A stretch of 47,240 nt of DNA, taken from IMG/VR virus record IMGVR_UViG_3300030329_004816, positions 1-47,240 of that record. The stretch is one strand, 5' to 3'. Numbering within the stretch: the first letter of the stretch is position 1; each line of letters opens with the position of its first letter. Below the pieces are notes generated by a model. It did no database searches. It was given only the letters and a program-made list of their open reading frames with translations, and was not told the origin of the DNA. The position numbers were made by a program, and so were the translations under genes. Shown here piece after piece: positions 9,502 to 33,132 of the stretch. This DNA comes from a virus.

Positions 9502-9529
9502 ATTATATACAGGGTTTGAAAGGTGTCAA
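9502..9529 (-). promoter_or_regulatory. Consensus sigma-70 promoter for the leftward module
   Basis: On the minus strand TTGACA (9529-9524) is followed after 16 nt by TATAAT (9507-9502), both perfect consensus hexamers. The ATG of the hydrolase-like gene is at 9492-9490, 9 nt past the -10, so the expected transcription start falls 0-3 nt before the start codon. The strength suggests early or constitutive host-polymerase expression. Confidence 0.8.
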
Positions 9530-11986: not shown

Positions 11987-12111
11987 ATTATAATGTAACT
12001 AAACTTGATTTGTAACGTATTTAGATACAAATTTACAGTGCAATGAGATTCTGGAAAAACCGACCGGGTATAAGAAGGAATCGCAAAGTGTTTCCATTAA
12101 GAGGTTACGTT

Positions 12112-13130: not shown

Positions 13131-13131
13131 T

Positions 13132-15295: not shown

Positions 15296-15363
15296 TTATT
15301 TACTTAGGCTAATTATTCAGTAAAGTGTAACGTACAACGACACATAACTCAAACAGATACACC

Positions 15364-16137: not shown

Positions 16138-16143
16138 GGAAAA

Positions 16144-19100
16144 ATGGCTCAAAGGAAATTTGGCCGCAAGGTCGAAAATGTAGGAAGACCGGGGCTTAAT
16201 CCCGGAAGAAATAACCTTGAAAGGGATGAGGCTCCCCCAGCTACCGATATAGATCCGGGCATAGCCCAAAAGCCTATTATATCGAGACCAGAGAACATAG
16301 ATCCGGGCATAGTTCATGGAGCAAGACCTAATCCTATGGTCGATGAAATTATTAATCGAACCAGAAAAGAAGCTATTGATGATTCTGCTCCTGTTGGACA
16401 GGAGCCATCGATCCGTCCTAGGATATTTGATCCAAGGAAAATCCAGCACAAACAGTTAAAGGATATTAATAAAGACCTAATCACGAGGCTCAATATAGAA
16501 GACCGAGAGGCCAATCGTAGACAGGAAGCACTTCAGAGGGAAAGCAGAACGAGAAGAGAGAAGGCATCTAAGGCACTTCAGGAACAACTGGAAGAACAAA
16601 GGGCAGAAGATTACTTTCAAGCAGAAAGAAGATTGGATCGAGAAGGCATTCAGTATGATAAGGATCGGCAAGGAAGACCAATCGTCAGGCGTGATAAAGA
16701 GGGGAAACCAACATACACCAAAAAGACAGGTGATATTGAAATTGACGAGAAGACAGGTCGGGCTTTCCGAATGGACAGAGATTCAAAGGGTAACCTTAAA
16801 CGAGTCGATGTTGATAAAGATGCAAAAGTTGGCCCTGATGCCACGAGAGATGACGGATTCATTTATCGCCAGAATAAATATACCGATTGGGAGCAAATCG
16901 ACCCGGAGGAAGGTCGATTCAGTTCTGATAGGAAAGTTGCTGTAGCATCTGCTAAGTATTTATACGAAAAGGAAAAGGAACGCATTGAAAGGCTGATAGA
17001 TGATCCTGTCCTCCCTCCAAAACTTACGAAAAGCGAAAAGAAGAAATACACTGAGGAGAGAGATAACATAAATAAATCTTTAGAAGATCTAGAGAAAAGT
17101 TTTAAAGATGGAGAAATCAAGGAAGAGGATTACAACGAATCTTTAACCTCTCTTCAAAATCAACTTCAAGAAGCGGAAGATAATTTAGGGGCAGGAGCAG
17201 AACGAGAAAAGCTGGAAAGGGAGCTATACGATCTTGAGGGTCGAGGGGCGGCGGCTTTTATGAAGCCGGGAGCCAAAAAGGAGGAGGGTGACCCGGCTAA
17301 AGAGGAGGCAGGGGAGTTAAAGACCCAAATTGAAACTTTTGAAAAAGAGCAGGAAGAATTTTCTCAGGGAATAGAAGCTGAGAAAGCAGAATTGGATGCG
17401 CTTCAAGACAAAGCGAAACAAGGAGGTTTAAGCGCAGAGGAGACTTTTGAGCTAACGGAGGAAATTAAAAGAAAAATAGCGGATGTAAATTCTCGCATTG
17501 AATCTGGCAACGAGAAATTATCTATTGATGCAGAAGATATTCGTAAAAGAAGTAAGGACTTAGCCTCAAGGCAAAAGTTGGCTTATCAAAAAGCTGTAAA
17601 AGAAAGAGACAAGCAACTTGATAGTCTAACGAACCCAATGACTTCAGATGTCATTGATGAGTTTCGTAAAGGGTTGGCTGAAATTGAAGCTAGGGAAAAG
17701 GCGTGGGCGGAGCTTCCCGGGGATCTTGATCGCCTCAAAAAGTTGGGGGCAGGAGCGAAAGCGGAAGACCACTACAAGAAACAGGTTAAGCACCAACTGG
17801 ATTTAGACAGGGAAAAATTAGCCGAACAATTTCAAGCAGGTCTCGAACAAACTGATGCACTGAAATCTGAAGCTGTTGAGGAAATAGAAAAGATACAGGC
17901 AGAAGTAAGCGAAGAGGTTGCATCTATCAGAATGCCTGTAGGCGGATCACGAGGCTTTGATCCAAATATATCTCAAAAAGTTCACGAAGAAAGAGAAGCA
18001 ATTTCAAATACTCTCCCCGAGAGAATTAGAAAATCCTTAACGGAAAAAGGCTTCAAACCTGACCAGATCGAGGCCGTAGTTGGAGATTTTGAAAAATCAA
18101 AAGACGTATTCAATGGAAAAGTGGATTCAGCCCTTTTGTCAGATGGAAGAATACAAGTCTCTCCTAGACTCATTTACAATTCTGATGACGAATTAAAAAA
18201 GACAATATCTCAAGCTGGTGGAACTAAAGAGCAACAGGATGCCGCCTTTTTAGAGGCCAGAAGAATGCAGGATCAAATGGGTGCGGAAATGGCCGAAACC
18301 ATTGGGAAAACCAAGTATGGGAAAGATTTTATCGAGTTCTCATCAAAGTTCATTGATGACTTTAAAAAGCAGAATCCACATTTCATAGACAAGGATGGGC
18401 AATACACAGAGGATAGCGAAGGGTTAAGGCCAACTCATGGCACTCTCATCAGGGCATTTAAGAATGCCAGAGGCGATTTATGGAATAATATTGCTTGGAA
18501 CGAATTTGGTAATTCATTGGGTCAAATCATGGCGTGGGTTCCTGCGATGATGGGATCTCAAAAGTATAAAGATGCAGGTGCTCAATTAAAAAAGGACAAC
18601 GAGGAACTTGCACAGCTTGGAGAGTTGATTGATAGCGAGGGATTTTTCCTTGGCTTTACCAAAAGAGAATTAATGGGCGGAGGATTATCTCTTGTTCCCT
18701 CGATGCTTCCCGGCATGGCGTTTGGGCGAGTAGCTACAGTTTTAGGGGCTGGAGGCAAAGCCGCAACTACAGCAGGTATGGTCGGCGCAACCGCAGGTGC
18801 TTTCGCTCAAAGTGGTGCTCCTACTTATTTTGATGCTCGTGAAGGATTTCAAACCAAGATTTACAACGAGTTACTTAAAGCCGAAGGGGTTGACGTTTCC
18901 GAAATATCGCCTGAAAGAATTTCAGAAATTGAAAAGGAATCGATAGAAAGAGCCGATTCACAAGCTCTTTGGGTTGGTTTAGCCACTGGTACTATCACTG
19001 CCGTTGTTATGGGAGTTTCGGCGAAACTTGTAGGGCCGAAAGGTGTTGAAGCAATCCTGAATAGAAATAAAGGAGGGATGGTTCCTGTCCGTCAGGTGGT

Positions 19101-22100
19101 TCGTGAATTATCTAAAAAGGGATTAAAGAAGGCATTAAAGAGTAAAGAATTTTATGCGTCCATTGGGAAAATGGCCGCAGACTTTGGAATTAATGTGAGC
19201 GAGGAATTTGCAGAGGAATTTTCCGATCAATTATTTAATGGCATCCTTGAAGCAAATACATTTAACCCTGATAAATCCTTTTCTGAAATACTTGCCGAGT
19301 CATGGAAAGCAGGAGTAATGGGGGCAGTTTTAGCTGGTGGCATGTCGGGGGCAGGAAGTGTTAAGAATGGGTCTTCAGAAGGCTGGAGTCAGTGGAGGAA
19401 GTCTATTAAAGACAAGAAGTCTTCGCTTGATAATATAAGTGATATTCCCTCGACTGAAGATCCTGTTGATAACCTTGCTCCGCAGGAGCAGTTAGTTTCA
19501 GCAGAACTTGAAATTGATAACTGGACACCCCCAGAAGGGGCGAACCCAGCGAGTATCGATTTAGACAAGAGGATGGCAAAGGCGGCAGGGCGCATCGCTG
19601 TTGGTGACATTGATTCTGTATCTGAGGCGGATTTAAACCTTTTAAATTTACAGAGAAATAAAGCAGGGGAAGTAGAGTCTGCGAAAGCTGACGGAGATCC
19701 CTGGGCAACTGCGGAAAATGGAGTCCCAATTCTAGGGCAAACATTAATTGATAGCCTGAGTCAAAGGCATCCAACATTAGCAAAACTACTGCCTAAAGAC
19801 GAAGCATCTCAGCGACAGTCGGCAAGACCTGTTGAGGAACAGAAACAAGCGGAGCAACCAAAGGCATCAGAGCCTTCTGAAACAAAGACACCAGAAGAAC
19901 AGGAGCAGGTTGGAGGAACTTTTGAAGTTCCAGTTTATGGAAAGGAAGAGCCTGTTCAGGTTGATGCTCTTGATGAGGAAGAAGCCGGAAGGAAAGTCGC
20001 TGAAATGGGGGTAGGAATGGTGGACTTTGGTGGCATCATCCAAACTGGCGTTGCTAAGACTCCAAGCCCTAAACCGCCAAGCCCTGAGACTGAGGAGATT
20101 GTATCTTCGGCTATTTCCCAGATCGAACAAGAAAAAGGAAGGGAACTTACTGCGGCGGAAAAAGCAGGAGTTAAAAAAGCGGCTTCTTTAGTTTCTAAGC
20201 AAATTGAAAAATGGGGTAAGATTTTTAAAGGCGTAGGCTGGACTCTTGAATCTATAGGGTCAGGGGGGATGTACACTAAAGATGGTAACTTAAATTTCTC
20301 AGTTCCAGATCTTTTAAGGAATCTCGCTTCAGAAAATATTGATTCGAAAACATGGGCGGAAAAAGCAGGTCTTGAGGAAGCGATTCACCTTGTCGCTTTT
20401 CAATTACACAAAGAAGGAAAAATTGATATCCGCAAACTATGGAAAGATTTACCAAAAGAAATCCAAGATGCAGTCAGAAAAACTTACCCAATTGAAAAAA
20501 AGGAACTTCAGAGATTAAGCGAAGAAATAAACGTACCAGTTGGAGAAATAGAAGCTGAACAGTTGGGAAATGAATTTCTTCGGATGATTGTTCAAGGCAG
20601 AATGGCTGTCAAAGATGGCCTTTGGGAGCTTGATGGGAGCGTAGTTTCAACTGAACAGGCTTCAAAAACACTGATACAATCAATCAGAAAGGCTTTTCAG
20701 GAGATTCTTGATTTCTTTAACGGAGTAATGGACTCGGATGAGGAGTTTGCCGTTGAAATCAGAAAGGCGGCAGAACTGATTGAACAAAGACTTAATGAAT
20801 TGACGGCTAAAACTGAGGAAAAGCCCAAGCCCAAGCCCAAAAAGGTGGCTAAAAAGAAAGTTGCTCAAAAAGAAGCACCGACTAGAGGGCCGCCTACCGG
20901 AAGAGTAGAAGGATCTACTGCACAAGTTATTAACGCAGGGAGAACTGTTAATGTTCGGTATGAGGTCAGATCTGCTTCAGATTCTAAACCATCACATGAC
21001 GCTTTAGGCAGAAAAACCGAGGGATACCCACAGGAATTACAGCCAAGGGATCGTTCGACAAAGGAGTACAGGCAACAGGCTAGAAATATCGCTAACAATC
21101 TTGATTTTGATAAGGCTGTATTTTTTCCGGGAACTGATACACCAGCGACTACAGCAGATATTGGAGCACCTATAATTACTCAAGAGGGAGCGATGGGAGA
21201 AGGAAGCCCATCATTTACTCTTATAGGTAATGGAAGGGATATAGGAGCAATAGAAAGTTACAGACTGGATACTCCTGCGTCTAAGGACTACAAACAAAAG
21301 CTCATTGATAATGCTGACAAGTTCGGACTCGACCCCGAGGCAGTATCCAAAATTAAAGACCCTGTATTATACAGAGTAATTACTGATAACTTATCAACAC
21401 CAGAACTAATAAGGTTTTCACAGGAAAGTAATGAGGGTGAAGCAATGGCTTCTAATGCTGTCGAGTTAGCAGGTCAAGATGCTCAAAGACTTACTCCTCA
21501 AATTCTTTATGCCTTAGATCCAGAGTTTGCAATAGACAGTAAAAAGAATCAAAAGTTTCTAACCCTTTACACTCAGAAAGTAATTGGTGCTCGTTCTGCA
21601 AATGAAGCAAACATAACTAAAAGTGATTTAGCTAGAAGAGCTAAAATGGCAATTTTCACGGCGGCTTACGGCCTCGATGCTGAAGGCAGGGCCGCATTGG
21701 ATCGCATGTCTGGTGATTCAGGAGATGCGGCAAAGCGTTTAACTAACGCTTTAATAACTGTTTCCCCGATGGTTGCCCGAATGAGGCAAGATATAGAGGC
21801 AGGTGCATTAAATGATTTAGACATATCCAATGATATTGCTAAAGCAGTTCAAAAGATATCCAGTGCTATCAGAGACGCAAAAAATATTAGCACAGCATGG
21901 GAGAGCCTCGAGGGGCAAGGTGAATTTGATTTAGGAGGAAAGGGAGTTGAAGATTTAATTCTCGATTACTTAGTAACTAACAGGGGAAATAGAAGCTCAT
22001 TAGAAAATGCTATAGGTAACTATGTCGAATCTGTTTACAGAATTGGAGACCCCAGACAAGAGGACATGTTTGGCAAAAGAGCTTTCCCTTCTCGGGAGGA

Positions 22101-25100
22101 ACTTTGGAATATTGCCGCTCAAGATGTGGAAAAGCCTGTAGAGGAAACTCAAAAAGCCGCAAAACCACTAAACGTTGCCTTAAAATCACAGCAGTTATCC
22201 GAGAAAAATTCTTTACAGGAATCCATAGATAAACACAAGGAAGCAGGAATTAAAATTGAGCCGTTCGTGGATTCGGATGGCAGAACCTTTAAGTTTGCCG
22301 AGACTATACTAAAGGCAGTTCAAAAACTTCCGCCGGAGACAAGAGAGGAACTCTTCCGTCTTGCAGTTGAAAATCAAGAGATTGCCAGATCTGAAAAGAA
22401 CAAACTTCCCAAAGAGGTACTTGCTGAAATTGCTAATATTAACAAGAAAAAGATCGAGCAAAGAACTCTTAATAGAGAAGACTACAAAGATCAGTGGAAT
22501 GATCATATTAAGAAGTACGTTAATCCAGAAGAAGGAATTGATTACAATAAGGATTTAGAAACGGAGATTGATAGGTTAGCTCAAGAGAATGGTGCTATTC
22601 CGCTTATGGGGCCAATCAAAGGAGATCGAGCAATCGATAAGGCTATTGATAAGGCAGAGGAGAGAATGGAACATAAACTAAAAATCAATCCAAACTTTAA
22701 CGAAGTTATCGAACCAGACTTTAACGAATTAACTGACGTTATTAGAGGATCATTAATTGCTACCACAAATGCAGAGGTTGATCAGTTAGTAGACTCCGTG
22801 TACGAAAATCCAAACTGGACGGTAATTAAAAATTCAAAAGGCCCAGAAGGAAAGGCCGATAAAAAGGATCGAAAACTTCACAAAAACAGATTTAAAAATC
22901 CTGTCGGCGGATACAAAGATCACATGATCTTAGTTGAAATGGCTCCCGGGGTAATTGCTGAGATTCAAGTTCATCGTGCTGACACTATTTATGCTAAAGA
23001 GGTCGGGCCGGGGCATTTGTTTTACGAGACAACCAGACAAATCATTGAGAGCAAAGTTCACAAAAGGAGTGCGCTAGGCTATAAAGGCACTCGAGTTACT
23101 CGCACTGCGAATAAAAAGTTTAAAGAAATCTCTAGGATATCAAAAGATTACTACACTAATTCGAGCAATATTTATGAAGATCAATTAGGAGACAAATATG
23201 ACCCTAATTTGAAAACTCAACGAGCCGCCGCATCGAGTTCAGCAGAAATGCGAAGAGCTTCCTCCTCGGTGATTTCTTCTGCACCAGAAAGTACAGTTTC
23301 GGTTATCCGAGCACGGCGGTCATCGTCTACAGGCTTAGATGCTCCAGCTATTCTAAGAAAACCCGGGCCTACCTCCCAAGGTATACCTGTTTCAGATAGA
23401 ACAAATGATGTTGTTACTTCCGGCATTACGCCTATTAATACATCAATTCCGCTAAAAGCGCAAGACTTAGATCTATTTAATGACTATGCAAAAACCCTAC
23501 CAGCTAGGACAAAAGCGTCAAAACCAGTATTTAAAAGGAAGGTGGCAAAAGATCTACCAGCCGCCTCGGGAAAGGATATTGATAATTTATTCGATTGGTT
23601 TAATGTGCCTGTAAATGAAGACGTTAGAGGAGATGCCGAAACAGGAACTCAGGGAGCACCCGATTTGGGAGAAGGTTTGGGACAATCTGAGCGAGGAGAA
23701 CCCTCGATTCCTGCTCAACAGTCTAGAGACAGTGGATCAAAGAGCGAAGATGATGATCAGAGCGACCAAGGGAGGGGTAGAGTGGACGAGCGCATCCCAA
23801 CAGATACTCCCGGAGAATCTGGAAGAGCAGAAGCCACTGACAGAGAAGGAACAGAAACAATTCCAGAAGATGAGCGACCTAGTGGAGAAGATGCTAGAAG
23901 AGAGGGACGAGAAGAGTCACCAAGAGTTCTTGAAAGGCCAGAAGTAGATTCCCCTGAAAGGAATCATACAATCGAGAGCCAAGAGGATCTAAATCCTTCG
24001 GGAGTCAAGGCTAGGATCAAAGCAAATGTTAAGGCGTTAAAACTTTTAAGAACGCTTGAAAAAGAGGACAGGAATCCAACTCCAGAGGAAAAATCTGCAT
24101 TAGCTAAGTTTTCAGGATGGGGAGCGGTTCCACAAGTCTTCGATAGAATTAAACTTCAAGAATCTCAGGATCTTGAAAGTTATCAAAGGGACTATGATAG
24201 GAATATAGAGACAGCTAATAAATCAAGTTCCTATATGAAGGATGTCTATCTTGAAGAAGCTCAGAAAGCTAAAGAAAAAATAGATAGATTAGGTAAGTGG
24301 GAAAAGAAATTCGGCAAAGAGGCAAGAGCTTTAAAAGAGCTTTTAACTGAGGATGAATGGGAGACGGCGGCGGCTTCAATCACTAATGCTCATTTTACAA
24401 GCATTGATGTAATTAAAGGAATGTGGGATGCTGTTGAAAGAATGGGTTTCAAAGGTGGGGTTGCTCTGGAACCTGCGGCTGGAGTTGGTCATTTCTTCGG
24501 AGCGATGCCTGACAAACTGTCTGACAGGACTTCAACAGTTGGAGTCGAGTTGGATTCAATATCAGGGCGTATTTTTTCTAAACTATACCCAGAAACAAAT
24601 GTATTTGTTCAAGGTTATCAAGATGCCCCAATAGAACCCGGGGCGGCTGATCTTGTTATCTCAAATGTTCCTTTTGAGAACACGTTTACTGTCGATGATA
24701 AATCATTGGGTAAAACTCCAAAGTTTAACCTTCATAATTACTTTTTCGCCAAAGCCCTTCAATCGGCGAAACCGGGAGGAATTGTTGCATTTATAACAAC
24801 TCATTTCACTATGGATGCTTCAGCAGATCAAAGAAGATGGTTGGCAAAGCATGGAGATTTAGTGGGAGCTATAAGGCTTCCCAATACGGCATTTAAGAAA
24901 AACGCAGGTACAGAGGTAACTACAGATATTATTTTCCTCAGAAAACCAGATGGTAAAAAATTCGAAGGAGAATCATGGAGCGAAGTTTCTGAGCAAAAAT
25001 TCCCTAAAGGGGGGCCAGTAAATGTAAACGAGTACTTTATTAAAAACCCTCAAATGATACTAGGCCGACTCAGTAATGATGGGTCAATGTTTGCTACTGA

Positions 25101-28100
25101 AGAAAAAGGAGAACTTACGGTTCATCCAACAGGGGATCTAGGAAGGCAACTATCTGAAGCAGTTAACAGGCTCCCATCTAATATTTTCGGAGAAGGATCT
25201 AGAACAGGAAAAATAGGAGAAGCAAAAAAAGAATCCAAGCGGAAGCAAGGGTCGATCTATTTGGATGGTAAATCAATTAAGGTGGAAGGTGTTTCTAAAG
25301 CGAAGTTACCAAAAAGGCCAGTAGTTGAATCTTTCATTCAAGTTAGAGATTCTCTTAATAATTTATTGGAAGCCGAAAAAGATCCTAATTCGACTGAGGA
25401 AAATATCACTTCAATACGAAATGATTTAAACAGGCTTTACGACTTACACGTTAAAAAGCATAAGAATTTCCACACAAGGGCATCTAAAGGTCTTTCCGTT
25501 GACCCAGATTACTATCGAGTCCTAGGACTTGAGCTTCAGCAGGAGGACGGCTCATTTAAAAAGGCATCCATCTTTAATGAAAGGGTGATGCGCCCTGTAG
25601 AAGAGCCTACAAGTGCCGACTCACAGGAAGATGCTCTTGCTCACTCACTGTCGTGGAAGGGGCTGGTAGACATCGATTACATGGCTCAACTTCTAGGGCA
25701 ACCTAAAGAAAAGATTTTAGATGAATTTGTAGGAAGCGGCCTTGGTTTTATAAATCCTGATAATGGATTGCCTGAGATCAGAAATCACTATCTCTCAGGG
25801 AACGTAAGGGAAAAGCTATTACAAGCAAAAGAAGCGGCTAAAACTTCAGAGAAGTTTGAAAGCAATGTAGAGGCATTAGAGGCAATTCAGCCAAAAGATT
25901 TAAAATACGAAGAAATATCATATTACCTTGGGTCAGCTTGGATACCCGGGGAGGTTATAGAGGATTTCGCACAAAACAGAATGAACTTAACTATGTCAGT
26001 TAATTATATGAGAACCGACACAGTTAATGAGATGGTTACTGAAAAGTGGGATGTTCAATCAACTGCTAGATGGTCACAGAGTAATGCTGAATTTGACCCA
26101 GGTGTTCCGAGATACAATGCTCAAAAAATATTAGAAAGTGTATTAAATTTAAGAACTCCAATAGTTAGAAAGAATGTAGGGACATCAGAAGACCCTCAAA
26201 TGGTTATAGATGAGAAAGCTACAGCCAACGTTAAGGCCGCCCAAGAAAGGATGAAGTTAGCTTTTAAAGACTGGATTGATGAAAATGAAGGCGCACAGAA
26301 CGCATTAACCGCTAACTATAACGAAAATTTCAATAACTATGTGGAGCCGACATATAACGGTCAACACATGGTGTTGCCTTGGATTAATCCCAAGTTTGAT
26401 TTATTCCCTGCCAAGAAAGACGTTGTATTTAGAGCTATACAAGATCGTAGAGGATTAATTGCTCATGGTGTTGGTGGAGGTAAAACAGTTATTGCTACAG
26501 CCATAGCAATGGAAATGAAAAGGCTTGGATTGGCTAACAAGCCATTGATTGCCGTACACAATGCAACTCTTGAACAATTCTCTGAAACTGTCAGAGAAAT
26601 GGCTCCAGATGCCAACATCCTAGTTGCTAGGAGATCAGATCTTGCAGGTGCAAAAAGAAAAGAGTTTTATGGGAAAATAGCATCAGGCGATTGGGATATG
26701 ATTATTATGGCTCAATCTACATTGGATCGGATACCTGATGATCCTGCTTACGAAAGAAAAATTCTTAATGAGGTAAAAGATCAGTTTATAACTTCCCTTC
26801 AACAAATTGCGATTGATGAAGGCAAGGACACACCAACTGTTAAGGAATTACAGAAAAGAATTAAGAGTATTAATGCTAAAATTGCTAAATTACAAAAAAG
26901 GAAAGTTGATGATATTTTAACTTTCCAAGAAATGGGCATCGATGCTCTTATCTTAGATGAGGCTCACTTATATAAGAAGCTCCCTTATGCTACAAAGCTA
27001 GGTAATCAAATAGCAGGTATAGATCGAGGGGCATCGCAAAGGGGAACATCTTTCTTAACCAAGTCACGGTACATTCAAGAAAACCAGAATGGTAAAAACA
27101 TATTTACCATGACAGGAACACCAGTAACTAACACTCTTGGTGAGACTTGGAATATGATAAGAATGGTTGCGCCTGATTTATTGTCTGATTTTAACGTCAG
27201 CACATTTGATTCATTTGCTACCACTTTTACCGAGATTGAAACTAGAGATGAACTGAGACCTAATGGAAGGTTCAAAAGAATACAAAGACTATCCAAAATA
27301 AGTAATATCCCGGAATGGAATAGGCTGTTTAGGCAAGTGGCTGACGTTAAACTTGGAGAAAAAATGGACGTAAAGAATCGTCCTGAGATCGAAGGTGGAG
27401 AGGCATTGCTTAAAGTGGTTCCTCAAACGGAAGGTGTTAATCAGTTTACTGAATATATCTTCAAGGTGATTGATAAATTTGATAATTTGGAAGGTAAGCA
27501 GAAAAGAGAATTTTCATACATCCCACTTGTTTCGTTTGGTGCGGCTAGAGCGGCGGCAATAGACATGAGAATGGTTGATCCTAATGCAAAGGACGAGCCG
27601 GGGAGTAAACTCAACAAAATGATCGACAGTGCAATCGATCTGTATAAAAAGCACGACAGCCAAAAAGCAACGCAGGTTGTTTTTGCAGACACATTTAGAG
27701 CAGTTAAAAGAGTAAAGCTCGAGGAGTTTCTTGAGGGTAACGTAATCGAGAGAGATATAACTGAGTCAGATGTAGAGGAAGAGGTTTCTTTTGAGGACAA
27801 TGAATTTAATCTTTATCAGGAGATTAAGAACAAACTAGCATCAAAAGGTGTACCAGAAGAGGAAATAGCAGACATCCAAGATTACAAAACTCCAGAATCT
27901 AGGCAAAAACTTTTTGATAAAGTGAATAATGGAGAAGTCCGGTTTGTTTTGGGGAGCACTCAAAAACTAGGCACAGGAGTTAATATGCAAGAGCGGATGA
28001 TTGCCGCTCATCACTTAGATGTTCCTTGGACACCTGCGGATCTCGAGCAAAGAGATGGTAGAGTTTATCGCCAAGGGAATATTTTTTCAGAGCTAAATGT

Positions 28101-31100
28101 GCCTATTCATCTGAATAGATACGGAATGCAGGAATCCCTAGATGCCGCTTTGTGGGATAAGATAGAATTTAAAGAGAGGTTTATCCGTCAAGCTATGAGC
28201 GGTGAAATGAACGCTCGTGTTATTGAGGAGGATGAAGGGCTACTTAGTCTCGCAGAACAAAAAGCTATTCTTATGGGAGCGGATGGCCTTCGCTTTTTCC
28301 AAGTCAGTCAAGAGATCGAGGCATTAGTTAGAGAGCGGAAAGCTCACGATTCATTAAGGGAAAGATCAGTTAACAATCTATCTGAATCAAAGACCAAACT
28401 TGAATTTGCTAAAGCCTTTAATGAAAAGATGACCACTGCAATGGGCAATCTTGAAAACAAGTGGGATGAAGACATGGAATTTGGCATTGAGCTAAATAAC
28501 ATTAAATATGAAGACACTAAAAAGGGAATTAAGGCTTTAGATAGGGTTTTCAAAGCTCACAACAAATCGATAAATAACAAAAGATTTAAAACACTTAGCG
28601 AGTTAAACAATGACAAAAAGCTAAGAGAGCCTCTTGCCAGTGTGACCGTTGATGGGGTCGAGGTTGAATTGAGTCACAGCGTGTTCAGAGAGAATTTAAG
28701 TGGAAAAAATCAATATCGCTCTGAGTTCATTCCGATAATTAAGATGCCTGACGGCTTAACTGTTAATTTGGAAAAAGTTACTTCAGCCGACACTTTTGAG
28801 AAAAGAATTAGAGCCGCCAAGGAAAAAATCAATATTAAGAACATTGGAGCGGAGCGAACAGTGGCTAGGGAGACTGAAAACATTCCTACATATACAGAAC
28901 TCGCAGAAAGGCCATTTCCTCGTGAAAAGGAATTACAGGACATGGTTACCGAATACAGAGAGATCGGGCCTAAGTTTGATGCTGATATGGGAATTGTCGA
29001 TTCTATAGATCCTTTAAGTGAAGAGGAGACTTCAATTCCGTTAAAATCTCAGAACCTTGATACCGATACTGCCCTCCCCTCCCATGATTTAGGAGGAAAA
29101 AAACCTTCTAGAGAAAAAATGGCTGACGCAATGATAGCGGCTAATCAAATGTTGCCTAGGGATCGTAGTCGTAAACAATTTGCTTACGAATACCGAAATG
29201 CAATGCCTAATCAAAAGTGGTTAACTGCATACGAGTTAGGGAACAGGTTATTCAGAGGAAGTGCTGAAGGAAAAGCAGCTTCTCAATCAATCCTTAATCG
29301 GTGGGTTGAGTCTGGCCTTGTGGACAGGATGTGGACTGAAGATGGTACACCTATTTATGCTTGGTCTGGAACGAAGCCGGAAAAAGGACTTTTAACCATG
29401 GATCAAATCAATAAAAAGTATCCAGAAGACGCACCACAATTTGAAAGGTTCGATGCAACTACACCTAATATTCTAAAATCTCAGAACCTTGATCCAGAGA
29501 CAGACGCTAGATACGACTTTGAGAATGTTCTTGATGAATTAACACTTCCTCCTGAGACTCTTAATATTTATTCGGGGGGTAGACTATTAGGGCGAAGAGG
29601 CGAAGATGTAGTTCGCAAGGCTCTTTTATACAAGGGCGAGAAAAGTCCACCTAAAATAAAAGAAGCAATTTTGGACGGAGGAGAGTCCTCAAATGTTTCA
29701 GAATCTATATATCCAGTGATTCTGGTTGAATTGGAAAATGGGGCAGAGTTCCGCAAAATCATTAGAATTTCAAGACATGATCAACTGTCCTCTCGTTCTC
29801 CAAGAGGATACGACTTGGATTATAGAGGCAAGAATTGGACAGAGGTTAAAAGCGATGTGCTTATAGACTTGCAAAACCTCGCTGACGATATTTGGGAAGA
29901 ACAAAAGAAAACCATTACTGGAGAAGTTGTTCCGGCAGAAGAGATAAGCCGAGAGAATGAAAAGAATAGGCAAGAGCGCATAGGCTACATTTCACGCCAA
30001 ATAGATAATCTTGAAAAGATAGGCATTCCTGCCCGAAGAAGGAAAGGCCATCTAGATAAGGTGCAGGAGTTTGAGGAAAGAGTTGCCAAGCTAAAAGAAG
30101 AACTTGTAAGCCTCGGCACTCAAACTACCAGTAATATTCTAAAATCTCAGAACCTTGCTGAAATCACAGGCGATACCGAAATCGATGTAGAACTTAAAAA
30201 GCTATACCAAGAGGCTCTTAACGAGCAATCCGGTGAACGCACTATAGGAAACCCTGAATTAGCTATAGGAGCGGAAGACCCTGCAATAATGTCTGTCGAT
30301 GAATATCGCAAGACGGCTGTAGGGGCTGAAACTTTTGAGCAGTGGAATGCTGAAGCCAAGGTAATGGTAGAAAACGATTACGAAGGAACAGCAGAAAGAA
30401 TTAAACAGCTTGGATTTGAAGGAGGGACTCTCGACCCTGTATTGACAAGAGCGGCGCAAATGATTGTTGCTCAAGAAATGTCGATGCCCATGACGAAGGA
30501 AAGAAGGGAAAATGTTCAAAAATTAGTCTGGGCATACAGGGCAACTGGAACAGAACAGGCCAGAGGACTGGCCTCGAGGAGAGACCCATTTAAAACACCT
30601 GAAGAAAGGCACAAGGAATTTCTTGGCAAGGTAATCTTCACGCCTCCGGCAAAGGTCAGGAAGAAGGTTGAAAAGGCAAGGACGCAGGAAGAGAAACAAA
30701 AGATTCTCGATAAAGATGCTATCCGGATTCAGAAGATTGAAAAAGAACTCGCAAGAATGGGAGTCACCTTTGATGACATTTTTAGAGGGGAAGTCGAGCT
30801 AACTCTTAAAGGATCGAAGATAAAAACAAATATCACAGAAGGATATTCTGCAAAACAAAAAATGGTTATCAAACTATTTAGTAGTGGTAAGACCTTAAAG
30901 CAAATTGCCAAAATGGTTGAATTGACTGTTAGCGAGGTAAAGCAGGTTCGGAATGCCTTTAAAGAGGAATTTGTACGGAGGCATTCGGATAAAGTCAGGC
31001 AAGGAGTAAAAGCAGAGGATCTGAGCGTTGACGATGAAACACTTATCCTTAAATCAAGTCCCTTGGATTTAAGCGAAGCTGAAGTTGATGCTGAAATTGA

Positions 31101-33132
31101 AAGAATGCTTCTTAAAATGGGTATCCCTCCATTAAACAAAATAGGCAAAATGAAAACTCGCAAGAGAAAGCCTAAAAAGAAAATGTTTAGACCTCCTGCT
31201 CCAAGCGGTGCTGAACAGGATGCCAAATGGGATGAGTTTAAAGACAGAGACTTTGAACCTGATTCTACTGATTATGTTCAAGAAGTCATGGTTGGAGTGG
31301 ATCTTTACGACCCTGTTGAAGTAGTTAAGATTGCGAGAGCGGCACAATCGGCTGATAGCAATGGGTGGAGTATGCTCCACGAATACTGGATCAACAATAT
31401 CCTTTCCGGCCCTCAAACGCATGTAGTTAACGTGACAGGAAATGTTGCTAATGCCGCATGGGATTTCACTGTTCAAAGAGGCATGGAGGCCATGCTTAAT
31501 ACAATTTTCAAGTCTGAAAAAGGAGCCACATTTAAAGAATATCGCCACATCATAAAAGGAATAATGCCTGGAGTGGCAAGGGGGATGAGATTAGCCCTGA
31601 AATCGTGGGGTGCTGAAACTGATTTCTTTAGAGCGGAAGTCCTTAATGAGCAGATCGATTTGAATGATGGATATATTAAAGGGGAGGGACATAAATCCTC
31701 TGTTCGTGGGAAAAAAGGAAAAGTCATCAGAATCCCCGGCAGGGCATTGTTATTTGCTGATACTTTCTTCAAAGGTCTCTTTGGAACTATGGAGGCAGGG
31801 GCGCAGGGGTACAGAATATCTAAAGCTCAAGGACTCAAAGGAAAAGAACTTGAGAAGAAAATTGCAGAATATGTAAACACTCCCAATAGTCAGGCTTGGC
31901 AGATCGCCGTTGATAAGGCTACAGATCTCACCTTCCAGACTCCTTTGAGATCAAGAGAAGAAGGAGGCAACTGGGCTGAAGCCGCAGTCCACTGGATATC
32001 AATGGGATCAAGGTCAGTTCCTCTTCTTAATTGGGTGATTCCTTTTGCAAGGACACCATTTAATATTTTTAAACAGGGAATGAGAAAGTCTCCACTTGGG
32101 ACAATTAATTTTGCATCGCACTTCCTCCGGAACGGTCTTTTCCGAAGGGAAAAAGGACAAACTGTCATCGATGCTTACCCTGAATTAATAAGAGATGCCG
32201 CAGAGCAGGTCTTGGCATGGACAGCTTACGCTGTCTTGCATGGAGCGGTTGAAGGAGATGATGATGACGATGAAAAGTTTTTCCTGATTACAGGATCAAG
32301 GCCTCCAAGATCGGGAGAAGCTGGAGTAAGGCAAAGAGATACAGGAGGAGATTATGTTATAAAAATTGGGGATCTCAAAATTCCGTATGGCCGAGTAGAG
32401 CCATTTTCAACAATCTTAGGAACAACGGCTGACTTAATTAGAGCCACGAAATCAAAAGCCACATCAGAAAGAGTTTATGGACAGTTGTGGGGATGGATGC
32501 TGGGTCAGGCCAGAAATAAAACCTTTATGCGTGGGCTAGGTGACGTTGCTAAAGCAATAGAAAAGCCGGAATCAGCTAGTTCATATACAAGTAGGTTTGT
32601 TAAAAATGCCATCGTACCAAACCTTATTCGACAGCCGATAAGGAATGTCGATAAGTATGATCGTGAATGGCGAAGCAAAGAATGGTGGTATGACATCCTG
32701 CCTTTACCATCGGGGGCTGAAAAGAAAGTTGATCCAGCAACAGGAAGATATGTTGAACGTGCTGGAACTGCGGCAACTAGACTGGTAATACCCAAAATTG
32801 AAAAGACTCAGAAGTTGGTTCAATCTGATAAATTTTTAGTTAATTGGAACCGAGAGAACCCTGCTCAAACTTGGGGGCCAACTACGCCTAGCAACAGCCT
32901 CAATATGCTCGATGGAAAAGGTCATATAAAACTGGGGCCGAACAGTTATAAATACCTCGTCAAAAGGTCAGCAACTCTTGCTCAAGGGCTGTTGGATGGT
33001 AAATTATCCCCATTCGACATTAAAGAACCTCGAGAGCGTAAACTGAACGAAATCCAGACAGCTTACAGAAAAGGGCGTGAACAGGCCAGAGATGAGCTTA
33101 GATCAAGACCAGAAATTTTGCTGAAGAAGTAA
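16144..33132 (+). CDS. Giant polyvalent protein (5662 aa), probably ejected with the DNA
   Basis: A single open frame of 16,989 nt. Order of parts by residue: 1-700 disordered and coiled coil; 840-1075 membrane-like Gly/Ala segments; about 1360-1560 degenerate metallopeptidase-like region with EEAIH (1411-1415) in place of HExxH; 1600-1995 DdrB-type ParB domain; 2150-2310 RelA/SpoT-like nucleotidyltransferase; 2340-2610 Ser-rich then acidic linkers; 2620-4060 DarB-like adenine methyltransferase plus helicase; 4060-4290 coiled coil; 4310-4430 winged-helix-like; 4451-4662 unknown domain; 4900-4945 sigma region 4-like helix-turn-helix; 5040-5662 the C-terminal domain with NNILSGPQTHVVN. LKSQNL-type linkers recur between parts. 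Polyvalent proteins of this type (P1 DarB/DdrB are known relatives) travel in the capsid and protect incoming DNA from restriction. It sits directly before the portal gene, consistent with a virion protein. No frameshift or stop interrupts it. Confidence 0.93.
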   Translation: MAQRKFGRKVENVGRPGLNPGRNNLERDEAPPATDIDPGIAQKPIISRPENIDPGIVHGARPNPMVDEIINRTRKEAIDDSAPVGQEPSIRPRIFDPRKIQHKQLKDINKDLITRLNIEDREANRRQEALQRESRTRREKASKALQEQLEEQRAEDYFQAERRLDREGIQYDKDRQGRPIVRRDKEGKPTYTKKTGDIEIDEKTGRAFRMDRDSKGNLKRVDVDKDAKVGPDATRDDGFIYRQNKYTDWEQIDPEEGRFSSDRKVAVASAKYLYEKEKERIERLIDDPVLPPKLTKSEKKKYTEERDNINKSLEDLEKSFKDGEIKEEDYNESLTSLQNQLQEAEDNLGAGAEREKLERELYDLEGRGAAAFMKPGAKKEEGDPAKEEAGELKTQIETFEKEQEEFSQGIEAEKAELDALQDKAKQGGLSAEETFELTEEIKRKIADVNSRIESGNEKLSIDAEDIRKRSKDLASRQKLAYQKAVKERDKQLDSLTNPMTSDVIDEFRKGLAEIEAREKAWAELPGDLDRLKKLGAGAKAEDHYKKQVKHQLDLDREKLAEQFQAGLEQTDALKSEAVEEIEKIQAEVSEEVASIRMPVGGSRGFDPNISQKVHEEREAISNTLPERIRKSLTEKGFKPDQIEAVVGDFEKSKDVFNGKVDSALLSDGRIQVSPRLIYNSDDELKKTISQAGGTKEQQDAAFLEARRMQDQMGAEMAETIGKTKYGKDFIEFSSKFIDDFKKQNPHFIDKDGQYTEDSEGLRPTHGTLIRAFKNARGDLWNNIAWNEFGNSLGQIMAWVPAMMGSQKYKDAGAQLKKDNEELAQLGELIDSEGFFLGFTKRELMGGGLSLVPSMLPGMAFGRVATVLGAGGKAATTAGMVGATAGAFAQSGAPTYFDAREGFQTKIYNELLKAEGVDVSEISPERISEIEKESIERADSQALWVGLATGTITAVVMGVSAKLVGPKGVEAILNRNKGGMVPVRQVVRELSKKGLKKALKSKEFYASIGKMAADFGINVSEEFAEEFSDQLFNGILEANTFNPDKSFSEILAESWKAGVMGAVLAGGMSGAGSVKNGSSEGWSQWRKSIKDKKSSLDNISDIPSTEDPVDNLAPQEQLVSAELEIDNWTPPEGANPASIDLDKRMAKAAGRIAVGDIDSVSEADLNLLNLQRNKAGEVESAKADGDPWATAENGVPILGQTLIDSLSQRHPTLAKLLPKDEASQRQSARPVEEQKQAEQPKASEPSETKTPEEQEQVGGTFEVPVYGKEEPVQVDALDEEEAGRKVAEMGVGMVDFGGIIQTGVAKTPSPKPPSPETEEIVSSAISQIEQEKGRELTAAEKAGVKKAASLVSKQIEKWGKIFKGVGWTLESIGSGGMYTKDGNLNFSVPDLLRNLASENIDSKTWAEKAGLEEAIHLVAFQLHKEGKIDIRKLWKDLPKEIQDAVRKTYPIEKKELQRLSEEINVPVGEIEAEQLGNEFLRMIVQGRMAVKDGLWELDGSVVSTEQASKTLIQSIRKAFQEILDFFNGVMDSDEEFAVEIRKAAELIEQRLNELTAKTEEKPKPKPKKVAKKKVAQKEAPTRGPPTGRVEGSTAQVINAGRTVNVRYEVRSASDSKPSHDALGRKTEGYPQELQPRDRSTKEYRQQARNIANNLDFDKAVFFPGTDTPATTADIGAPIITQEGAMGEGSPSFTLIGNGRDIGAIESYRLDTPASKDYKQKLIDNADKFGLDPEAVSKIKDPVLYRVITDNLSTPELIRFSQESNEGEAMASNAVELAGQDAQRLTPQILYALDPEFAIDSKKNQKFLTLYTQKVIGARSANEANITKSDLARRAKMAIFTAAYGLDAEGRAALDRMSGDSGDAAKRLTNALITVSPMVARMRQDIEAGALNDLDISNDIAKAVQKISSAIRDAKNISTAWESLEGQGEFDLGGKGVEDLILDYLVTNRGNRSSLENAIGNYVESVYRIGDPRQEDMFGKRAFPSREELWNIAAQDVEKPVEETQKAAKPLNVALKSQQLSEKNSLQESIDKHKEAGIKIEPFVDSDGRTFKFAETILKAVQKLPPETREELFRLAVENQEIARSEKNKLPKEVLAEIANINKKKIEQRTLNREDYKDQWNDHIKKYVNPEEGIDYNKDLETEIDRLAQENGAIPLMGPIKGDRAIDKAIDKAEERMEHKLKINPNFNEVIEPDFNELTDVIRGSLIATTNAEVDQLVDSVYENPNWTVIKNSKGPEGKADKKDRKLHKNRFKNPVGGYKDHMILVEMAPGVIAEIQVHRADTIYAKEVGPGHLFYETTRQIIESKVHKRSALGYKGTRVTRTANKKFKEISRISKDYYTNSSNIYEDQLGDKYDPNLKTQRAAASSSAEMRRASSSVISSAPESTVSVIRARRSSSTGLDAPAILRKPGPTSQGIPVSDRTNDVVTSGITPINTSIPLKAQDLDLFNDYAKTLPARTKASKPVFKRKVAKDLPAASGKDIDNLFDWFNVPVNEDVRGDAETGTQGAPDLGEGLGQSERGEPSIPAQQSRDSGSKSEDDDQSDQGRGRVDERIPTDTPGESGRAEATDREGTETIPEDERPSGEDARREGREESPRVLERPEVDSPERNHTIESQEDLNPSGVKARIKANVKALKLLRTLEKEDRNPTPEEKSALAKFSGWGAVPQVFDRIKLQESQDLESYQRDYDRNIETANKSSSYMKDVYLEEAQKAKEKIDRLGKWEKKFGKEARALKELLTEDEWETAAASITNAHFTSIDVIKGMWDAVERMGFKGGVALEPAAGVGHFFGAMPDKLSDRTSTVGVELDSISGRIFSKLYPETNVFVQGYQDAPIEPGAADLVISNVPFENTFTVDDKSLGKTPKFNLHNYFFAKALQSAKPGGIVAFITTHFTMDASADQRRWLAKHGDLVGAIRLPNTAFKKNAGTEVTTDIIFLRKPDGKKFEGESWSEVSEQKFPKGGPVNVNEYFIKNPQMILGRLSNDGSMFATEEKGELTVHPTGDLGRQLSEAVNRLPSNIFGEGSRTGKIGEAKKESKRKQGSIYLDGKSIKVEGVSKAKLPKRPVVESFIQVRDSLNNLLEAEKDPNSTEENITSIRNDLNRLYDLHVKKHKNFHTRASKGLSVDPDYYRVLGLELQQEDGSFKKASIFNERVMRPVEEPTSADSQEDALAHSLSWKGLVDIDYMAQLLGQPKEKILDEFVGSGLGFINPDNGLPEIRNHYLSGNVREKLLQAKEAAKTSEKFESNVEALEAIQPKDLKYEEISYYLGSAWIPGEVIEDFAQNRMNLTMSVNYMRTDTVNEMVTEKWDVQSTARWSQSNAEFDPGVPRYNAQKILESVLNLRTPIVRKNVGTSEDPQMVIDEKATANVKAAQERMKLAFKDWIDENEGAQNALTANYNENFNNYVEPTYNGQHMVLPWINPKFDLFPAKKDVVFRAIQDRRGLIAHGVGGGKTVIATAIAMEMKRLGLANKPLIAVHNATLEQFSETVREMAPDANILVARRSDLAGAKRKEFYGKIASGDWDMIIMAQSTLDRIPDDPAYERKILNEVKDQFITSLQQIAIDEGKDTPTVKELQKRIKSINAKIAKLQKRKVDDILTFQEMGIDALILDEAHLYKKLPYATKLGNQIAGIDRGASQRGTSFLTKSRYIQENQNGKNIFTMTGTPVTNTLGETWNMIRMVAPDLLSDFNVSTFDSFATTFTEIETRDELRPNGRFKRIQRLSKISNIPEWNRLFRQVADVKLGEKMDVKNRPEIEGGEALLKVVPQTEGVNQFTEYIFKVIDKFDNLEGKQKREFSYIPLVSFGAARAAAIDMRMVDPNAKDEPGSKLNKMIDSAIDLYKKHDSQKATQVVFADTFRAVKRVKLEEFLEGNVIERDITESDVEEEVSFEDNEFNLYQEIKNKLASKGVPEEEIADIQDYKTPESRQKLFDKVNNGEVRFVLGSTQKLGTGVNMQERMIAAHHLDVPWTPADLEQRDGRVYRQGNIFSELNVPIHLNRYGMQESLDAALWDKIEFKERFIRQAMSGEMNARVIEEDEGLLSLAEQKAILMGADGLRFFQVSQEIEALVRERKAHDSLRERSVNNLSESKTKLEFAKAFNEKMTTAMGNLENKWDEDMEFGIELNNIKYEDTKKGIKALDRVFKAHNKSINNKRFKTLSELNNDKKLREPLASVTVDGVEVELSHSVFRENLSGKNQYRSEFIPIIKMPDGLTVNLEKVTSADTFEKRIRAAKEKINIKNIGAERTVARETENIPTYTELAERPFPREKELQDMVTEYREIGPKFDADMGIVDSIDPLSEEETSIPLKSQNLDTDTALPSHDLGGKKPSREKMADAMIAANQMLPRDRSRKQFAYEYRNAMPNQKWLTAYELGNRLFRGSAEGKAASQSILNRWVESGLVDRMWTEDGTPIYAWSGTKPEKGLLTMDQINKKYPEDAPQFERFDATTPNILKSQNLDPETDARYDFENVLDELTLPPETLNIYSGGRLLGRRGEDVVRKALLYKGEKSPPKIKEAILDGGESSNVSESIYPVILVELENGAEFRKIIRISRHDQLSSRSPRGYDLDYRGKNWTEVKSDVLIDLQNLADDIWEEQKKTITGEVVPAEEISRENEKNRQERIGYISRQIDNLEKIGIPARRRKGHLDKVQEFEERVAKLKEELVSLGTQTTSNILKSQNLAEITGDTEIDVELKKLYQEALNEQSGERTIGNPELAIGAEDPAIMSVDEYRKTAVGAETFEQWNAEAKVMVENDYEGTAERIKQLGFEGGTLDPVLTRAAQMIVAQEMSMPMTKERRENVQKLVWAYRATGTEQARGLASRRDPFKTPEERHKEFLGKVIFTPPAKVRKKVEKARTQEEKQKILDKDAIRIQKIEKELARMGVTFDDIFRGEVELTLKGSKIKTNITEGYSAKQKMVIKLFSSGKTLKQIAKMVELTVSEVKQVRNAFKEEFVRRHSDKVRQGVKAEDLSVDDETLILKSSPLDLSEAEVDAEIERMLLKMGIPPLNKIGKMKTRKRKPKKKMFRPPAPSGAEQDAKWDEFKDRDFEPDSTDYVQEVMVGVDLYDPVEVVKIARAAQSADSNGWSMLHEYWINNILSGPQTHVVNVTGNVANAAWDFTVQRGMEAMLNTIFKSEKGATFKEYRHIIKGIMPGVARGMRLALKSWGAETDFFRAEVLNEQIDLNDGYIKGEGHKSSVRGKKGKVIRIPGRALLFADTFFKGLFGTMEAGAQGYRISKAQGLKGKELEKKIAEYVNTPNSQAWQIAVDKATDLTFQTPLRSREEGGNWAEAAVHWISMGSRSVPLLNWVIPFARTPFNIFKQGMRKSPLGTINFASHFLRNGLFRREKGQTVIDAYPELIRDAAEQVLAWTAYAVLHGAVEGDDDDDEKFFLITGSRPPRSGEAGVRQRDTGGDYVIKIGDLKIPYGRVEPFSTILGTTADLIRATKSKATSERVYGQLWGWMLGQARNKTFMRGLGDVAKAIEKPESASSYTSRFVKNAIVPNLIRQPIRNVDKYDREWRSKEWWYDILPLPSGAEKKVDPATGRYVERAGTAATRLVIPKIEKTQKLVQSDKFLVNWNRENPAQTWGPTTPSNSLNMLDGKGHIKLGPNSYKYLVKRSATLAQGLLDGKLSPFDIKEPRERKLNEIQTAYRKGREQARDELRSRPEILLKK
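20926..22128 (+). other. DdrB-type ParB-superfamily domain within the giant protein
   Basis: Residues about 1595-1995 carry NVRYEVRSASDSKPSHDALG, then GYPQELQPRDRS, an IGAPIIT segment and LIGNGRDIGAIESY. This is the recognisable order of the ParB-like domain of phage P1 DdrB and related polyvalent proteins (SH, YPQELQPRDR, GAPI, GNGR). A helical part follows, ending near PRQEDMFGKRAFPSREELWN. The family is predicted to be nuclease-like and is linked to protection of incoming DNA; activity here is not demonstrated. Confidence 0.82.
22591..23073 (+). other. RelA/SpoT-like nucleotidyltransferase domain within the giant protein
   Basis: Residues about 2150-2310. A helical lead-in (DKAIDKAEERMEHKL) is followed by ELTDVIRGSLIA with D2198 in the metal-binding position. 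RFKNPVGGYKDHM carries Y2257 in the GY motif, VIAEIQVH has E2273 in the EIQ motif, and KEVGPGHLFYE occupies the place of the conserved AExGHWxYK block. This is the order of the (p)ppGpp synthetase fold. The lead-in lacks a clear copy of the Arg/Lys ATP-binding helix, so the nucleotide donor is uncertain. It may make alarmones, pyrophosphorylate another target such as tRNA, or be inactive. Confidence 0.72.
24001..28323 (+). other. DarB-like adenine methyltransferase-helicase region within the giant protein
   Basis: Residues 2620-4060. The N-terminal block VKARIKANVKALKLLRTLE and KFSGWGAVPQVFD is characteristic of DarB-like proteins. The methyltransferase has EPAAGVG (2776-2782) for AdoMet binding and SNVPFEN (2840-2846) as the catalytic NPPF-type motif. 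The helicase has Walker A GVGGGKT (3442-3448), DEAH (3605-3608), TMTGTPVTNT and the motif VI block QRDGRVYRQG (3969-3978). P1 DarB protects the incoming genome from type I restriction in cis, and the same role is likely here. Confidence 0.9.
29042..30157 (+). repeat. Dispersed in-frame DNA repeat encoding LKSQNL linkers (outer limits)
   Basis: The 18-mer TAAAATCTCAGAACCTTG occurs three times in the giant gene: 29042-29059, 29474-29491 and 30140-30157. The last two copies are identical over 26 nt (29466-29491 and 30132-30157). All are in the same frame and encode LKSQNL. Related peptides without close DNA identity are ALKSQQL (residue 2013), PLKAQDL (2437) and ILKSSPL (4968). The copies bracket compact domains, including a winged-helix-like domain and an unknown domain. 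Confidence 0.9.

What the first reader, a model, noticed from the sequence alone, without database searches (positions are those of the whole stretch)
16144..33132. A 5662-residue polyvalent protein takes up over a third of the window
It combines membrane-like segments, a degenerate peptidase, DdrB-ParB, RelA/SpoT-like, DarB-like methyltransferase-helicase, winged-helix, sigma-4-like helix-turn-helix and the C-terminal NxxLSGPxTHxxN domain in one chain. The RelA/SpoT-like plus DarB plus DNA-binding combination is one I do not recognise from described examples, and it sits directly upstream of portal.
Basis: partly seen in the sequence, partly recalled or inferred. Interest (0 to 1): 0.7.

Follow-up and report, generated by a model that had tools for sequence, protein, structure and literature searches.

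The report
Giant phage protein carrying alarmone synthetase
This virus of bacteria encodes one enormous protein, probably packed into the particle and injected, that joins DNA-protecting enzymes to a domain resembling bacterial toxins that convert ATP into a poisonous signal, and the same genome carries an enzyme that may undo that signal.

Summary
The 5,662-aa frame is real and lies directly upstream of a portal gene. It belongs to the known kind 'phage polyvalent / DarB-like giant protein': 115 phage records carry its methylase-helicase, and closed frames of 5,749-6,304 aa occur elsewhere. The combination is not unique: the domain sits N-terminal to DarB in one frame in 6 of 52 other DarB loci, and as a separate gene near portal, an alarmone hydrolase and DarB in PHB04-like phages. 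The window also encodes an HD hydrolase (9019-9492, minus) whose best solved match is a (p)ppApp hydrolase, behind a perfect sigma-70 consensus; the other six fused records lack one. The C-terminus matches internal virion (ejection) proteins of T7-like podophages. Most likely: an injected protein protecting phage DNA and making a (p)ppApp-like nucleotide. New variant of a known kind; activity untested.

The parts
16144..33132 (+). giant polyvalent protein, 5,662 aa
18964..19020 (+). only hydrophobic 19-residue segment over KD 1.6 (aa 941-959)
20368..20403 (+). GLEEAIHLVAFQ, possible degenerate zincin helix (aa 1409-1420); no intact HExxH in the protein
20935..21381 (+). DdrB-like ParB domain (aa 1598-1746)
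   Evidence: Pfam PF18763 E 7.6e-18
22180..22203 (+). repeat tag 1 LKSQQLSE (aa 2013)
22534..23223 (+). RSH-fold, Tas1/Apk-like synthetase domain (aa 2131-2360); K-G, D-VI-R, K-NRF, G-Y, E-I-Q present
23452..23475 (+). repeat tag 2 LKAQDLDL (aa 2437)
23812..28968 (+). DarB-like adenine methylase plus SWI2/SNF2 helicase (aa 2557-4275)
29041..29064 (+). repeat tag 3 LKSQNLDT (aa 4300)
29473..29496 (+). repeat tag 4 LKSQNLDP (aa 4444)
30139..30162 (+). repeat tag 5 LKSQNLAE (aa 4666)
30247..31143 (+). region aa 4702-5000, shared with other giants (22-28% identity)
30853..30945 (+). possible helix-turn-helix (aa 4904-4934), below cut-offs
31048..31071 (+). repeat tag 6 LKSSPLDL (aa 4969)
31354..32892 (+). 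C-terminal ejection-type domain (aa 5071-5583), with NxxLSGPxTHxxN at aa 5084-5096
33162..35267 (+). portal protein (SU10-type)
   Evidence: PF23899 E 1.2e-14
9019..9492 (-). HD/HD_4 hydrolase, Aph1-like; candidate antidote or counter-defence enzyme
9502..9529 (-). TTGACA-16-TATAAT, 12 of 12, directly upstream of the hydrolase ATG

Best explanation
The gene encodes a virion-borne, injected polyvalent protein. Its C-terminal domain is of the kind found in internal virion (ejection) proteins and probably places the chain at the portal and carries it through the ejection path (inferred). Once inside, the DarB-like methylase-helicase protects incoming DNA from type I restriction, as P1 DarB does (inferred from family). 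The RSH-fold domain between DdrB-ParB and DarB is a synthetase nearest to Tas1/Apk1; it probably moves pyrophosphate from ATP to the 3' position of an adenosine nucleotide, making (p)ppApp or a close relative and pulling down ATP and host metabolism early in infection (inferred; predicted fold and catalytic residues are shown, chemistry is not). The separate HD hydrolase, expressed from a host-type promoter, probably degrades this product and so limits the damage in the cell that makes new particles (weakest step).
For: Shown by computation: DarB family, E down to 5e-216, with intact motifs LEPAAGVG, NVPF, GVGGGKT, DEAH, TGTP, QRDGR. C-terminal domain: internal virion protein D of Desulfovibrio phage ProddE, E 1e-14, and other T7-like podophages; ProddE lists it after internal virion proteins B and C and before the tail fibre; its model matches viral internal virion and polyvalent proteins. 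A DarB-like relative, JC1 gp69, was found in purified virions with 51 unique peptides (PMC9144972). Synthetase domain: solved-structure profiles rank Tas1 first: 1.2e-10 for six mostly PHB04-like sequences, 2.9e-4 for window plus G018 alone with no RelA or SAS chain listed up to E 10, 1.3e-11 for five fused forms, next SpoT 0.0077. The predicted fold aligns to Tas1 at Z 9.1, rmsd 4.1 over 162 residues, 23% identity. Residues named for Apk1 (R330, K353, E382 and the Q beside it) are matched, and R stands at D+3 as in Tas1, not D+5 as in the Rel proteins aligned. Of the 7 fused forms, 6 keep D..R and E.Q. Hydrolase: best solved match is a (p)ppApp hydrolase, E 1.4e-12, next RelA/SpoT 4e-9; it has the region's only 12-of-12 sigma-70 site. 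Independent association: in PHB04-like loci the synthetase gene has a hydrolase gene nearby in 12 of 19, a portal in 13 of 19 and a DarB-like gene in 11 of 19 (several loci are fragments).
Against: No activity, virion or infection data. The window domain alone does not match PF04607 nor any RSH chain in PDB; the link runs through relatives. Apk syn3 'GxN' is not met: the window has DxM, and Apk1 N370 is M. The fold cannot separate Tas1 (Z 9.1) from ppGpp synthetases (Z up to 10.2). One fused relative, L176, has lost the R and the Q. The hydrolase lies about 7 kb away on the other strand, and 0 of 6 other fused records carry HD_4; their completeness is unknown. The PHB04 hydrolase is MESH1-like (4.6e-36), not Aph1-like (6e-4), so the pairing is not one inherited module. 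Two giants (G038, G040) carry an HD domain with no synthetase detected, which suits counter-defence. No T7 gp16 chain was matched in PDB.
Confidence: 0.5

Rival explanations
1. The synthetase domain is active but makes (p)ppGpp or pyrophosphorylates tRNA, like SAS or CapRel/FaRel2 enzymes, rather than (p)ppApp.
For: Predicted fold ties with SAS1/SAS2 (Z 9-10) and is near CapRel (7.6). Syn3 is neither the RSH nor the Apk signature.
Against: Sequence profiles rank Tas1 ahead of every Rel/SAS chain; R at D+3 and H after EIQV follow the Apk pattern given.
Confidence: 0.2
2. The domain is a decayed or purely structural module; the giant acts only in antirestriction and ejection.
For: One of 7 fused forms has lost two catalytic residues (L176); the position of Apk1 N370 is not kept in the window.
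Against: Catalytic residues are kept in 6 of 7 fused forms, at 28-36% identity to the window for the four measured, and in all 16 rows of A4, which suggests selection.
Confidence: 0.13
3. The HD hydrolase is unrelated to the giant: it is an early counter-defence enzyme against host alarmone-based anti-phage systems, or housekeeping.
For: Own early-type promoter; 0 of 6 other fused records carry HD_4; HD domains occur inside two DarB giants in which no synthetase was detected.
Against: HD_4 was found in 5 of 15 synthetase-bearing records (6 of 16 with PHB04) against 2 of 77 others; records are related and may be incomplete, and in 43 of the 77 the synthetase was sought only in the fetched stretch. 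Its best solved match is a (p)ppApp hydrolase.
Confidence: 0.3
4. The long frame is an assembly or translation artefact joining several genes.
For: The record has no near match in 50,697 phage records; one relative (L174) has DarB in two frames.
Against: Uninterrupted 5,662 codons; colinear single frames in other contigs and phage genomes with 4,515-5,553-aa DarB proteins.
Confidence: 0.02

Closest known systems
DarB-like giant proteins (P1 DarB; Bcep22/JC1 gp69; PHROG 10089)
   Same: methylase-SNF2 dyad, about 30-35% identity in the listed phage records, 47 records covering at least 80% of the query; large size; virion gene region; DarB before portal in P1 and BKO1-TP3
   Different: added Tas1-like synthetase and a T7-type ejection domain, neither found in 13 DarB proteins from phage records; methylase motif NVPF where 10 of 14 relatives have NPPF
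Phage polyvalent proteins with RelA/SpoT domains (Iyer et al. 2017, PMC5512222)
   Same: disparate domains in one chain near late genes; RelA/SpoT with DdrB-ParB reported in Helicobacter (pro)phages
   Different: the text read here does not mention RelA/SpoT with the methylase-helicase dyad; those examples are from Spirochaetes and epsilon-proteobacteria
Apk2-Aph1 (MuF polymorphic toxins of temperate phages) and Tas1/Apk1 (T6SS effector)
   Same: Tas1 is the nearest solved synthetase; head-gene location; an HD (p)ppApp-hydrolase-like gene in the same genome, as with Aph1
   Different: no MuF domain matched; the domain is internal in a giant; syn3 differs; the hydrolase is not adjacent; no IapK/Tis1-like immunity protein recognised (none was sought with a model)
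Bordetella phage PHB04 block (portal - RSH - HD hydrolase - phosphatase - methylase-helicase)
   Same: same functions as separate neighbouring genes
   Different: separate genes; MESH1-like rather than Aph1-like hydrolase
Internal virion protein D of T7-like podophages
   Same: C-terminal ~450 aa, about 24% identity, LSGPxTH-type motif
   Different: fused to the end of a giant multi-enzyme chain; no match to a T7 gp16 structure

Membership tests
Phage polyvalent proteins | two or more disparate effector domains in one chain | tested here: met
   DdrB-ParB, RSH synthetase, methylase, helicase
Phage polyvalent proteins | gene next to virion genes | tested here: met
   portal 29 bases downstream
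Phage polyvalent proteins | carried in the virion and injected | not testable with these tools
   needs proteomics; a relative, JC1 gp69, is in virions
DarB-like antirestriction proteins | adenine methylase fused to SWI2/SNF2 ATPase | tested here: met
   PHROG 10089; motifs
DarB-like antirestriction proteins | protects DNA from type I restriction | not testable with these tools
   experiment
RSH synthetase superfamily | RSH nucleotidyltransferase fold | tested here: met
   the first 29 VIA rows are all RSH-type synthetases; model pLDDT 70.8
RSH synthetase superfamily | catalytic D and E with K and Y | tested here: met
   invariant in A4
RSH synthetase superfamily | direct match to the curated PF04607 model | tested here: inconclusive
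   window domain alone has none; its relative PHB04 ATI15652 passes
Adenosine 3'-pyrophosphokinases (Apk: Tas1, Apk2) | syn2 with R at D+3 (RYT-like, not AVR) | tested here: met
   window D-VI-R-G-S; Tas1 D-LA-R-N-T
Adenosine 3'-pyrophosphokinases (Apk: Tas1, Apk2) | syn4 H rather than R after E-x-Q-x | tested here: met
   window EIQVH; Tas1 itself reads EIQVN, so this residue is not strict
Adenosine 3'-pyrophosphokinases (Apk: Tas1, Apk2) | syn3 GxN | tested here: not met
   window DHM; hence not filed as an Apk, only nearest to it
Adenosine 3'-pyrophosphokinases (Apk: Tas1, Apk2) | makes (p)ppApp | not testable with these tools
   experiment
MuF polymorphic toxins | N-terminal MuF domain | tested here: not met
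   no MuF match in any of nine pieces in Pfam at E 0.5
Aph1-type (p)ppApp hydrolases (9019-9492) | HD motifs (HP, HDxxED, D...N) | tested here: met
   GDDYVTHP, FHDVLED, VADIIDN in the translation; motif set recalled
Aph1-type (p)ppApp hydrolases (9019-9492) | nearest to Aph1 rather than MESH1/Rel | tested here: met
   7smg 1.4e-12, Rel/SpoT 4e-9
Aph1-type (p)ppApp hydrolases (9019-9492) | adjacent to the synthetase gene | tested here: not met
   about 6.7 kb upstream of the giant, opposite strand; hence not filed as a cognate immunity gene
T7-type internal virion protein (C-terminal domain) | C-terminal domain homology | tested here: met
T7-type internal virion protein (C-terminal domain) | structural match to T7 gp16 | tested here: inconclusive
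   no PDB match at E<=0.001; none by sequence profile

The most novel reading that the evidence does not exclude
DarB-type phages inject a ready-made Tas1-like adenosine pyrophosphokinase with their genome, converting host ATP to (p)ppApp at the first moment of infection, to block host defence, host metabolism or rival phages, while an early-expressed hydrolase lets the infecting phage switch the effect off: a timed alarmone pulse carried in the particle, built in one chain with the DNA-protection machinery and flanked by virus-specific repeat tags that may be processing or docking sites.
Probability: 0.28. Interest if true: 0.8.

Novelty: new variant of a known kind. Interest (0 to 1): 0.52.

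Why it matters
It links two fields that rarely meet: DarB antirestriction giants and the (p)ppApp toxin/hydrolase systems known from T6SS effectors and MuF prophage toxins. If true, some phages deliver an alarmone enzyme from the particle itself, and the recurrence in seven viruses gives natural variants for a direct test: does the injected domain deplete ATP, and does the phage hydrolase reverse it? It also corrects the label: 'RelA/SpoT-like' would send an experimenter to ppGpp, whereas the sequence points to ppApp.

Tried and rejected
Assembly artefact: rejected. Unique combination: rejected. Size as a novelty: rejected, closed frames of 5,749, 5,771, 6,067, 6,102 and 6,304 codons exist. 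The PLxRFG motif as the counterpart of the repeat tags: rejected, it occurs once per protein in 6 of 14 proteins. Tags as packaging tags shared by other virion genes: rejected, they occur only in the giant, apart from three looser matches in short frames of 64-86 codons. An amino-acid shuffle test for the tags was only modest (4 copies against at most 3 in 40 local shuffles); the DNA repeat is clear (3 exact 18-mers, 0.07 expected with up to 3 mismatches). Single-protein scans for close relatives found none. Plasmids: no match to the synthetase region. C-terminal model against PDB: nothing at E<=0.001, T7 gp16 not seen in the 50 rows shown. Profile of the C-terminal domain against PDB sequences: none. 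A genome-contig scan gave one bacterial locus (Oxalobacteraceae MAG), not followed. NCBIfam added nothing decisive for the giant. A DarB phmmer used an out-of-frame query and is ignored; one search replaces it. IapK/Tis1-like immunity proteins were not sought with a model.

Full report
What is there. The window is an IMG/VR virus record of 47,240 bases, possibly a fragment, with no near DNA match for 20000-44000 in 50,697 phage records. A single ATG frame of 5,662 codons spans 16144-33132, followed after 29 bases by a portal gene (PF23899, E 1.2e-14). Neighbours include a major head protein (2112-3629), a head protein (3987-4427), an endolysin (12588-13130), a primase/helicase, a helicase, a Sak4-like protein, a methyltransferase, an exonuclease and a repressor-like gene.

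Anatomy of the giant. DdrB-ParB, aa 1598-1746, E 7.6e-18. DarB-like methylase-helicase, aa 2557-4275; tblastn finds it in 115 phage records, 47 of them over at least 80% of the query. Conserved motifs are intact; the methylase motif is NVPF, also seen in 3 of 14 relatives, while 10 of 14 have NPPF and one has NAPF. C-terminal aa 5071-5583 matches internal virion protein D of T7-like podophages in 18 phage records (best E 1e-14, ProddE); an LSGPxTH-type motif is shared; the AlphaFold2 model (pLDDT 70.5) matches viral polyvalent and internal virion proteins (38 at E<=0.001) but nothing in PDB at that level. The peptidase, membrane, winged-helix and sigma-4 readings are weak.

The RelA/SpoT-like domain. 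The window domain alone matches no Pfam RSH model and no RSH chain in PDB. tblastn found one phage, Bordetella PHB04 (E 7e-3), whose protein ATI15652 passes PF04607. Two profile scans of IMG/VR gave 10 and 19 loci, overlapping. The 16-row alignment keeps K110, D149, R152, K198, Y208, E224 and Q226 without exception. The structure predicted from it (pLDDT 70.8, pTM 0.59) has RSH-type synthetases in the first 29 rows of the second-look alignment. Fold does not discriminate between subfamilies; sequence does: profile searches of solved structures put Tas1 (6OX6) first with 1.2e-10, 2.9e-4 for window plus G018 and 1.3e-11 for five fused domains, with canonical enzymes at 1e-3 or weaker. Published Apk1 residues R330, K353 and E382 with the Q beside it (PMC12691689, passages) correspond to window residues of the same kind; N370 corresponds to M. 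Published signatures separating Apk from RSH (PMC12226406, passages) agree at syn2, partly at syn4, and disagree at syn3. I therefore call it Tas1/Apk-like, not an Apk.

Recurrence. None of 13 other DarB proteins from phage records carries the domain (window found at 4e-62, the best other at 0.14). G018, a 59.6-kb contig with an integrase, has a frame of at least 6,061 codons, running off the contig end, with ParB, synthetase, DarB and the start of the C-terminal domain in the same order. A scan with a three-sequence DarB alignment gave 52 loci; 6 carry the domain in the same frame, N-terminal of DarB (L151, L166, L167, L168 = G018, L176, L181). Five of these 6 keep D..R and E.Q; L176 does not. 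The C-terminal domain was found in 8 of 53 DarB frames, so the modules are reshuffled. In PHB04-like loci the synthetase is a separate gene: of 19 loci, 13 hold the portal, 12 the hydrolase and 11 a DarB-like gene (some loci are short fragments).

The hydrolase. 9019-9492 (-) matches HD (28.8 bits, cut-off 22) and HD_4 (25.5 bits, cut-off 27.2). Its best solved match is a (p)ppApp hydrolase. HD_4 was found in 5 of 15 whole records that bear the synthetase (window, G001, G002, G005, G008) and by ORF scan in PHB04, and in 2 of 77 records without a detected synthetase (18, 16, 43 after removing five fused records and G012, counted before; three of the 52 DarB loci were not: L168 was already covered as G018, L148 and L177 were left out). 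The two exceptions, G038 and G040, have the HD domain inside the DarB giant itself. Among the seven fused records only the window has it. So the pair is suggestive, not established. The gene has TTGACA-16-TATAAT directly upstream, the only perfect site of 20 in 6500-17000; the number of sites overall is as expected (18.3).

Repeat tags. Six copies of a motif like LK[SA][QS]xL lie between modules (aa 2013, 2437, 4300, 4444, 4666, 4969); three share an exact 18-base stretch. G018's giant has its own tag, LGSSPA-like, six copies, also outside the domains recognised there. They could be processing sites, docking motifs or recombination joints; undecided.

Mechanism. Shown: gene structure, domain homologies, predicted fold, residue conservation, recurrence. 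Inferred: presence in the virion (supported by JC1 gp69 in CsCl-purified virions, PMC9144972 passages; and P1 DarB in heads, PMC9024508 passages), passage through the ejection path (PMC8954989 passages for T7 gp16), antirestriction, (p)ppApp synthesis, and control by the hydrolase.

Prior art. RelA/SpoT in phage polyvalent proteins: PMC5512222 (abstract, passages, sections 8, 14, 22, 32). Apk2-Aph1 in prophage heads: PMC12226406 and PMC11699363 (passages). Tas1 and toxSAS: PMC11782079 (passages). A Listeria phage with a predicted alarmone synthetase/hydrolase gene: PMC12282133 (passages). Primary papers on Tas1, Aph1 and Apk2 were not seen, only as cited there. I found no report of the synthetase plus DarB in one chain in searches (listings only, apart from the papers named); the library is incomplete.

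Noticed in passing
window 22180, 23452, 29041, 29473, 30139, 31048; L134 (G018) aa 2304, 2368, 2509, 5280, 5418, 5771: Each of these two giants has its own short repeated tag in the linkers between modules (LKSQNLD-like in the window, LGSSPA-like in G018); function unknown.
   Followed up: partly
L155 and L157 (G038, G040), DarB frame aa 829-938: An HD hydrolase domain related to the window's 9019-9492 protein lies inside two DarB giants where no synthetase domain was detected.
   Followed up: partly
L003, L025, L032, L037 and others: Conserved block portal - Tas1-like synthetase gene - hydrolase (MESH1-like in PHB04) - DarB-like gene in PHB04-like viruses.
   Followed up: partly
L018 6844-19179 (Pseudomonas phage Itty13): The deposited annotation places three genes on the opposite strand of a 4,112-codon DarB-like frame; probably misannotated.
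   Followed up: no
window 43611-44612 (-) and 37874-39244 (-): A second DNA methyltransferase gene and a separate helicase in the replication region.
   Followed up: no
window 13482-14258 (+): Metallophosphoesterase-like gene (PHROG 221); PHB04 also has a phosphatase gene after its synthetase and hydrolase, but the two proteins are only weakly alike.
   Followed up: partly
L174, frames 2577-11570 and 11574-15941: A DarB gene split in two frames by a stop; real or a sequencing error.
   Followed up: no
L048 (Oxalobacteraceae MAG contig): One bacterial contig carries the synthetase family in a 587-codon frame, possibly a prophage.
   Followed up: no
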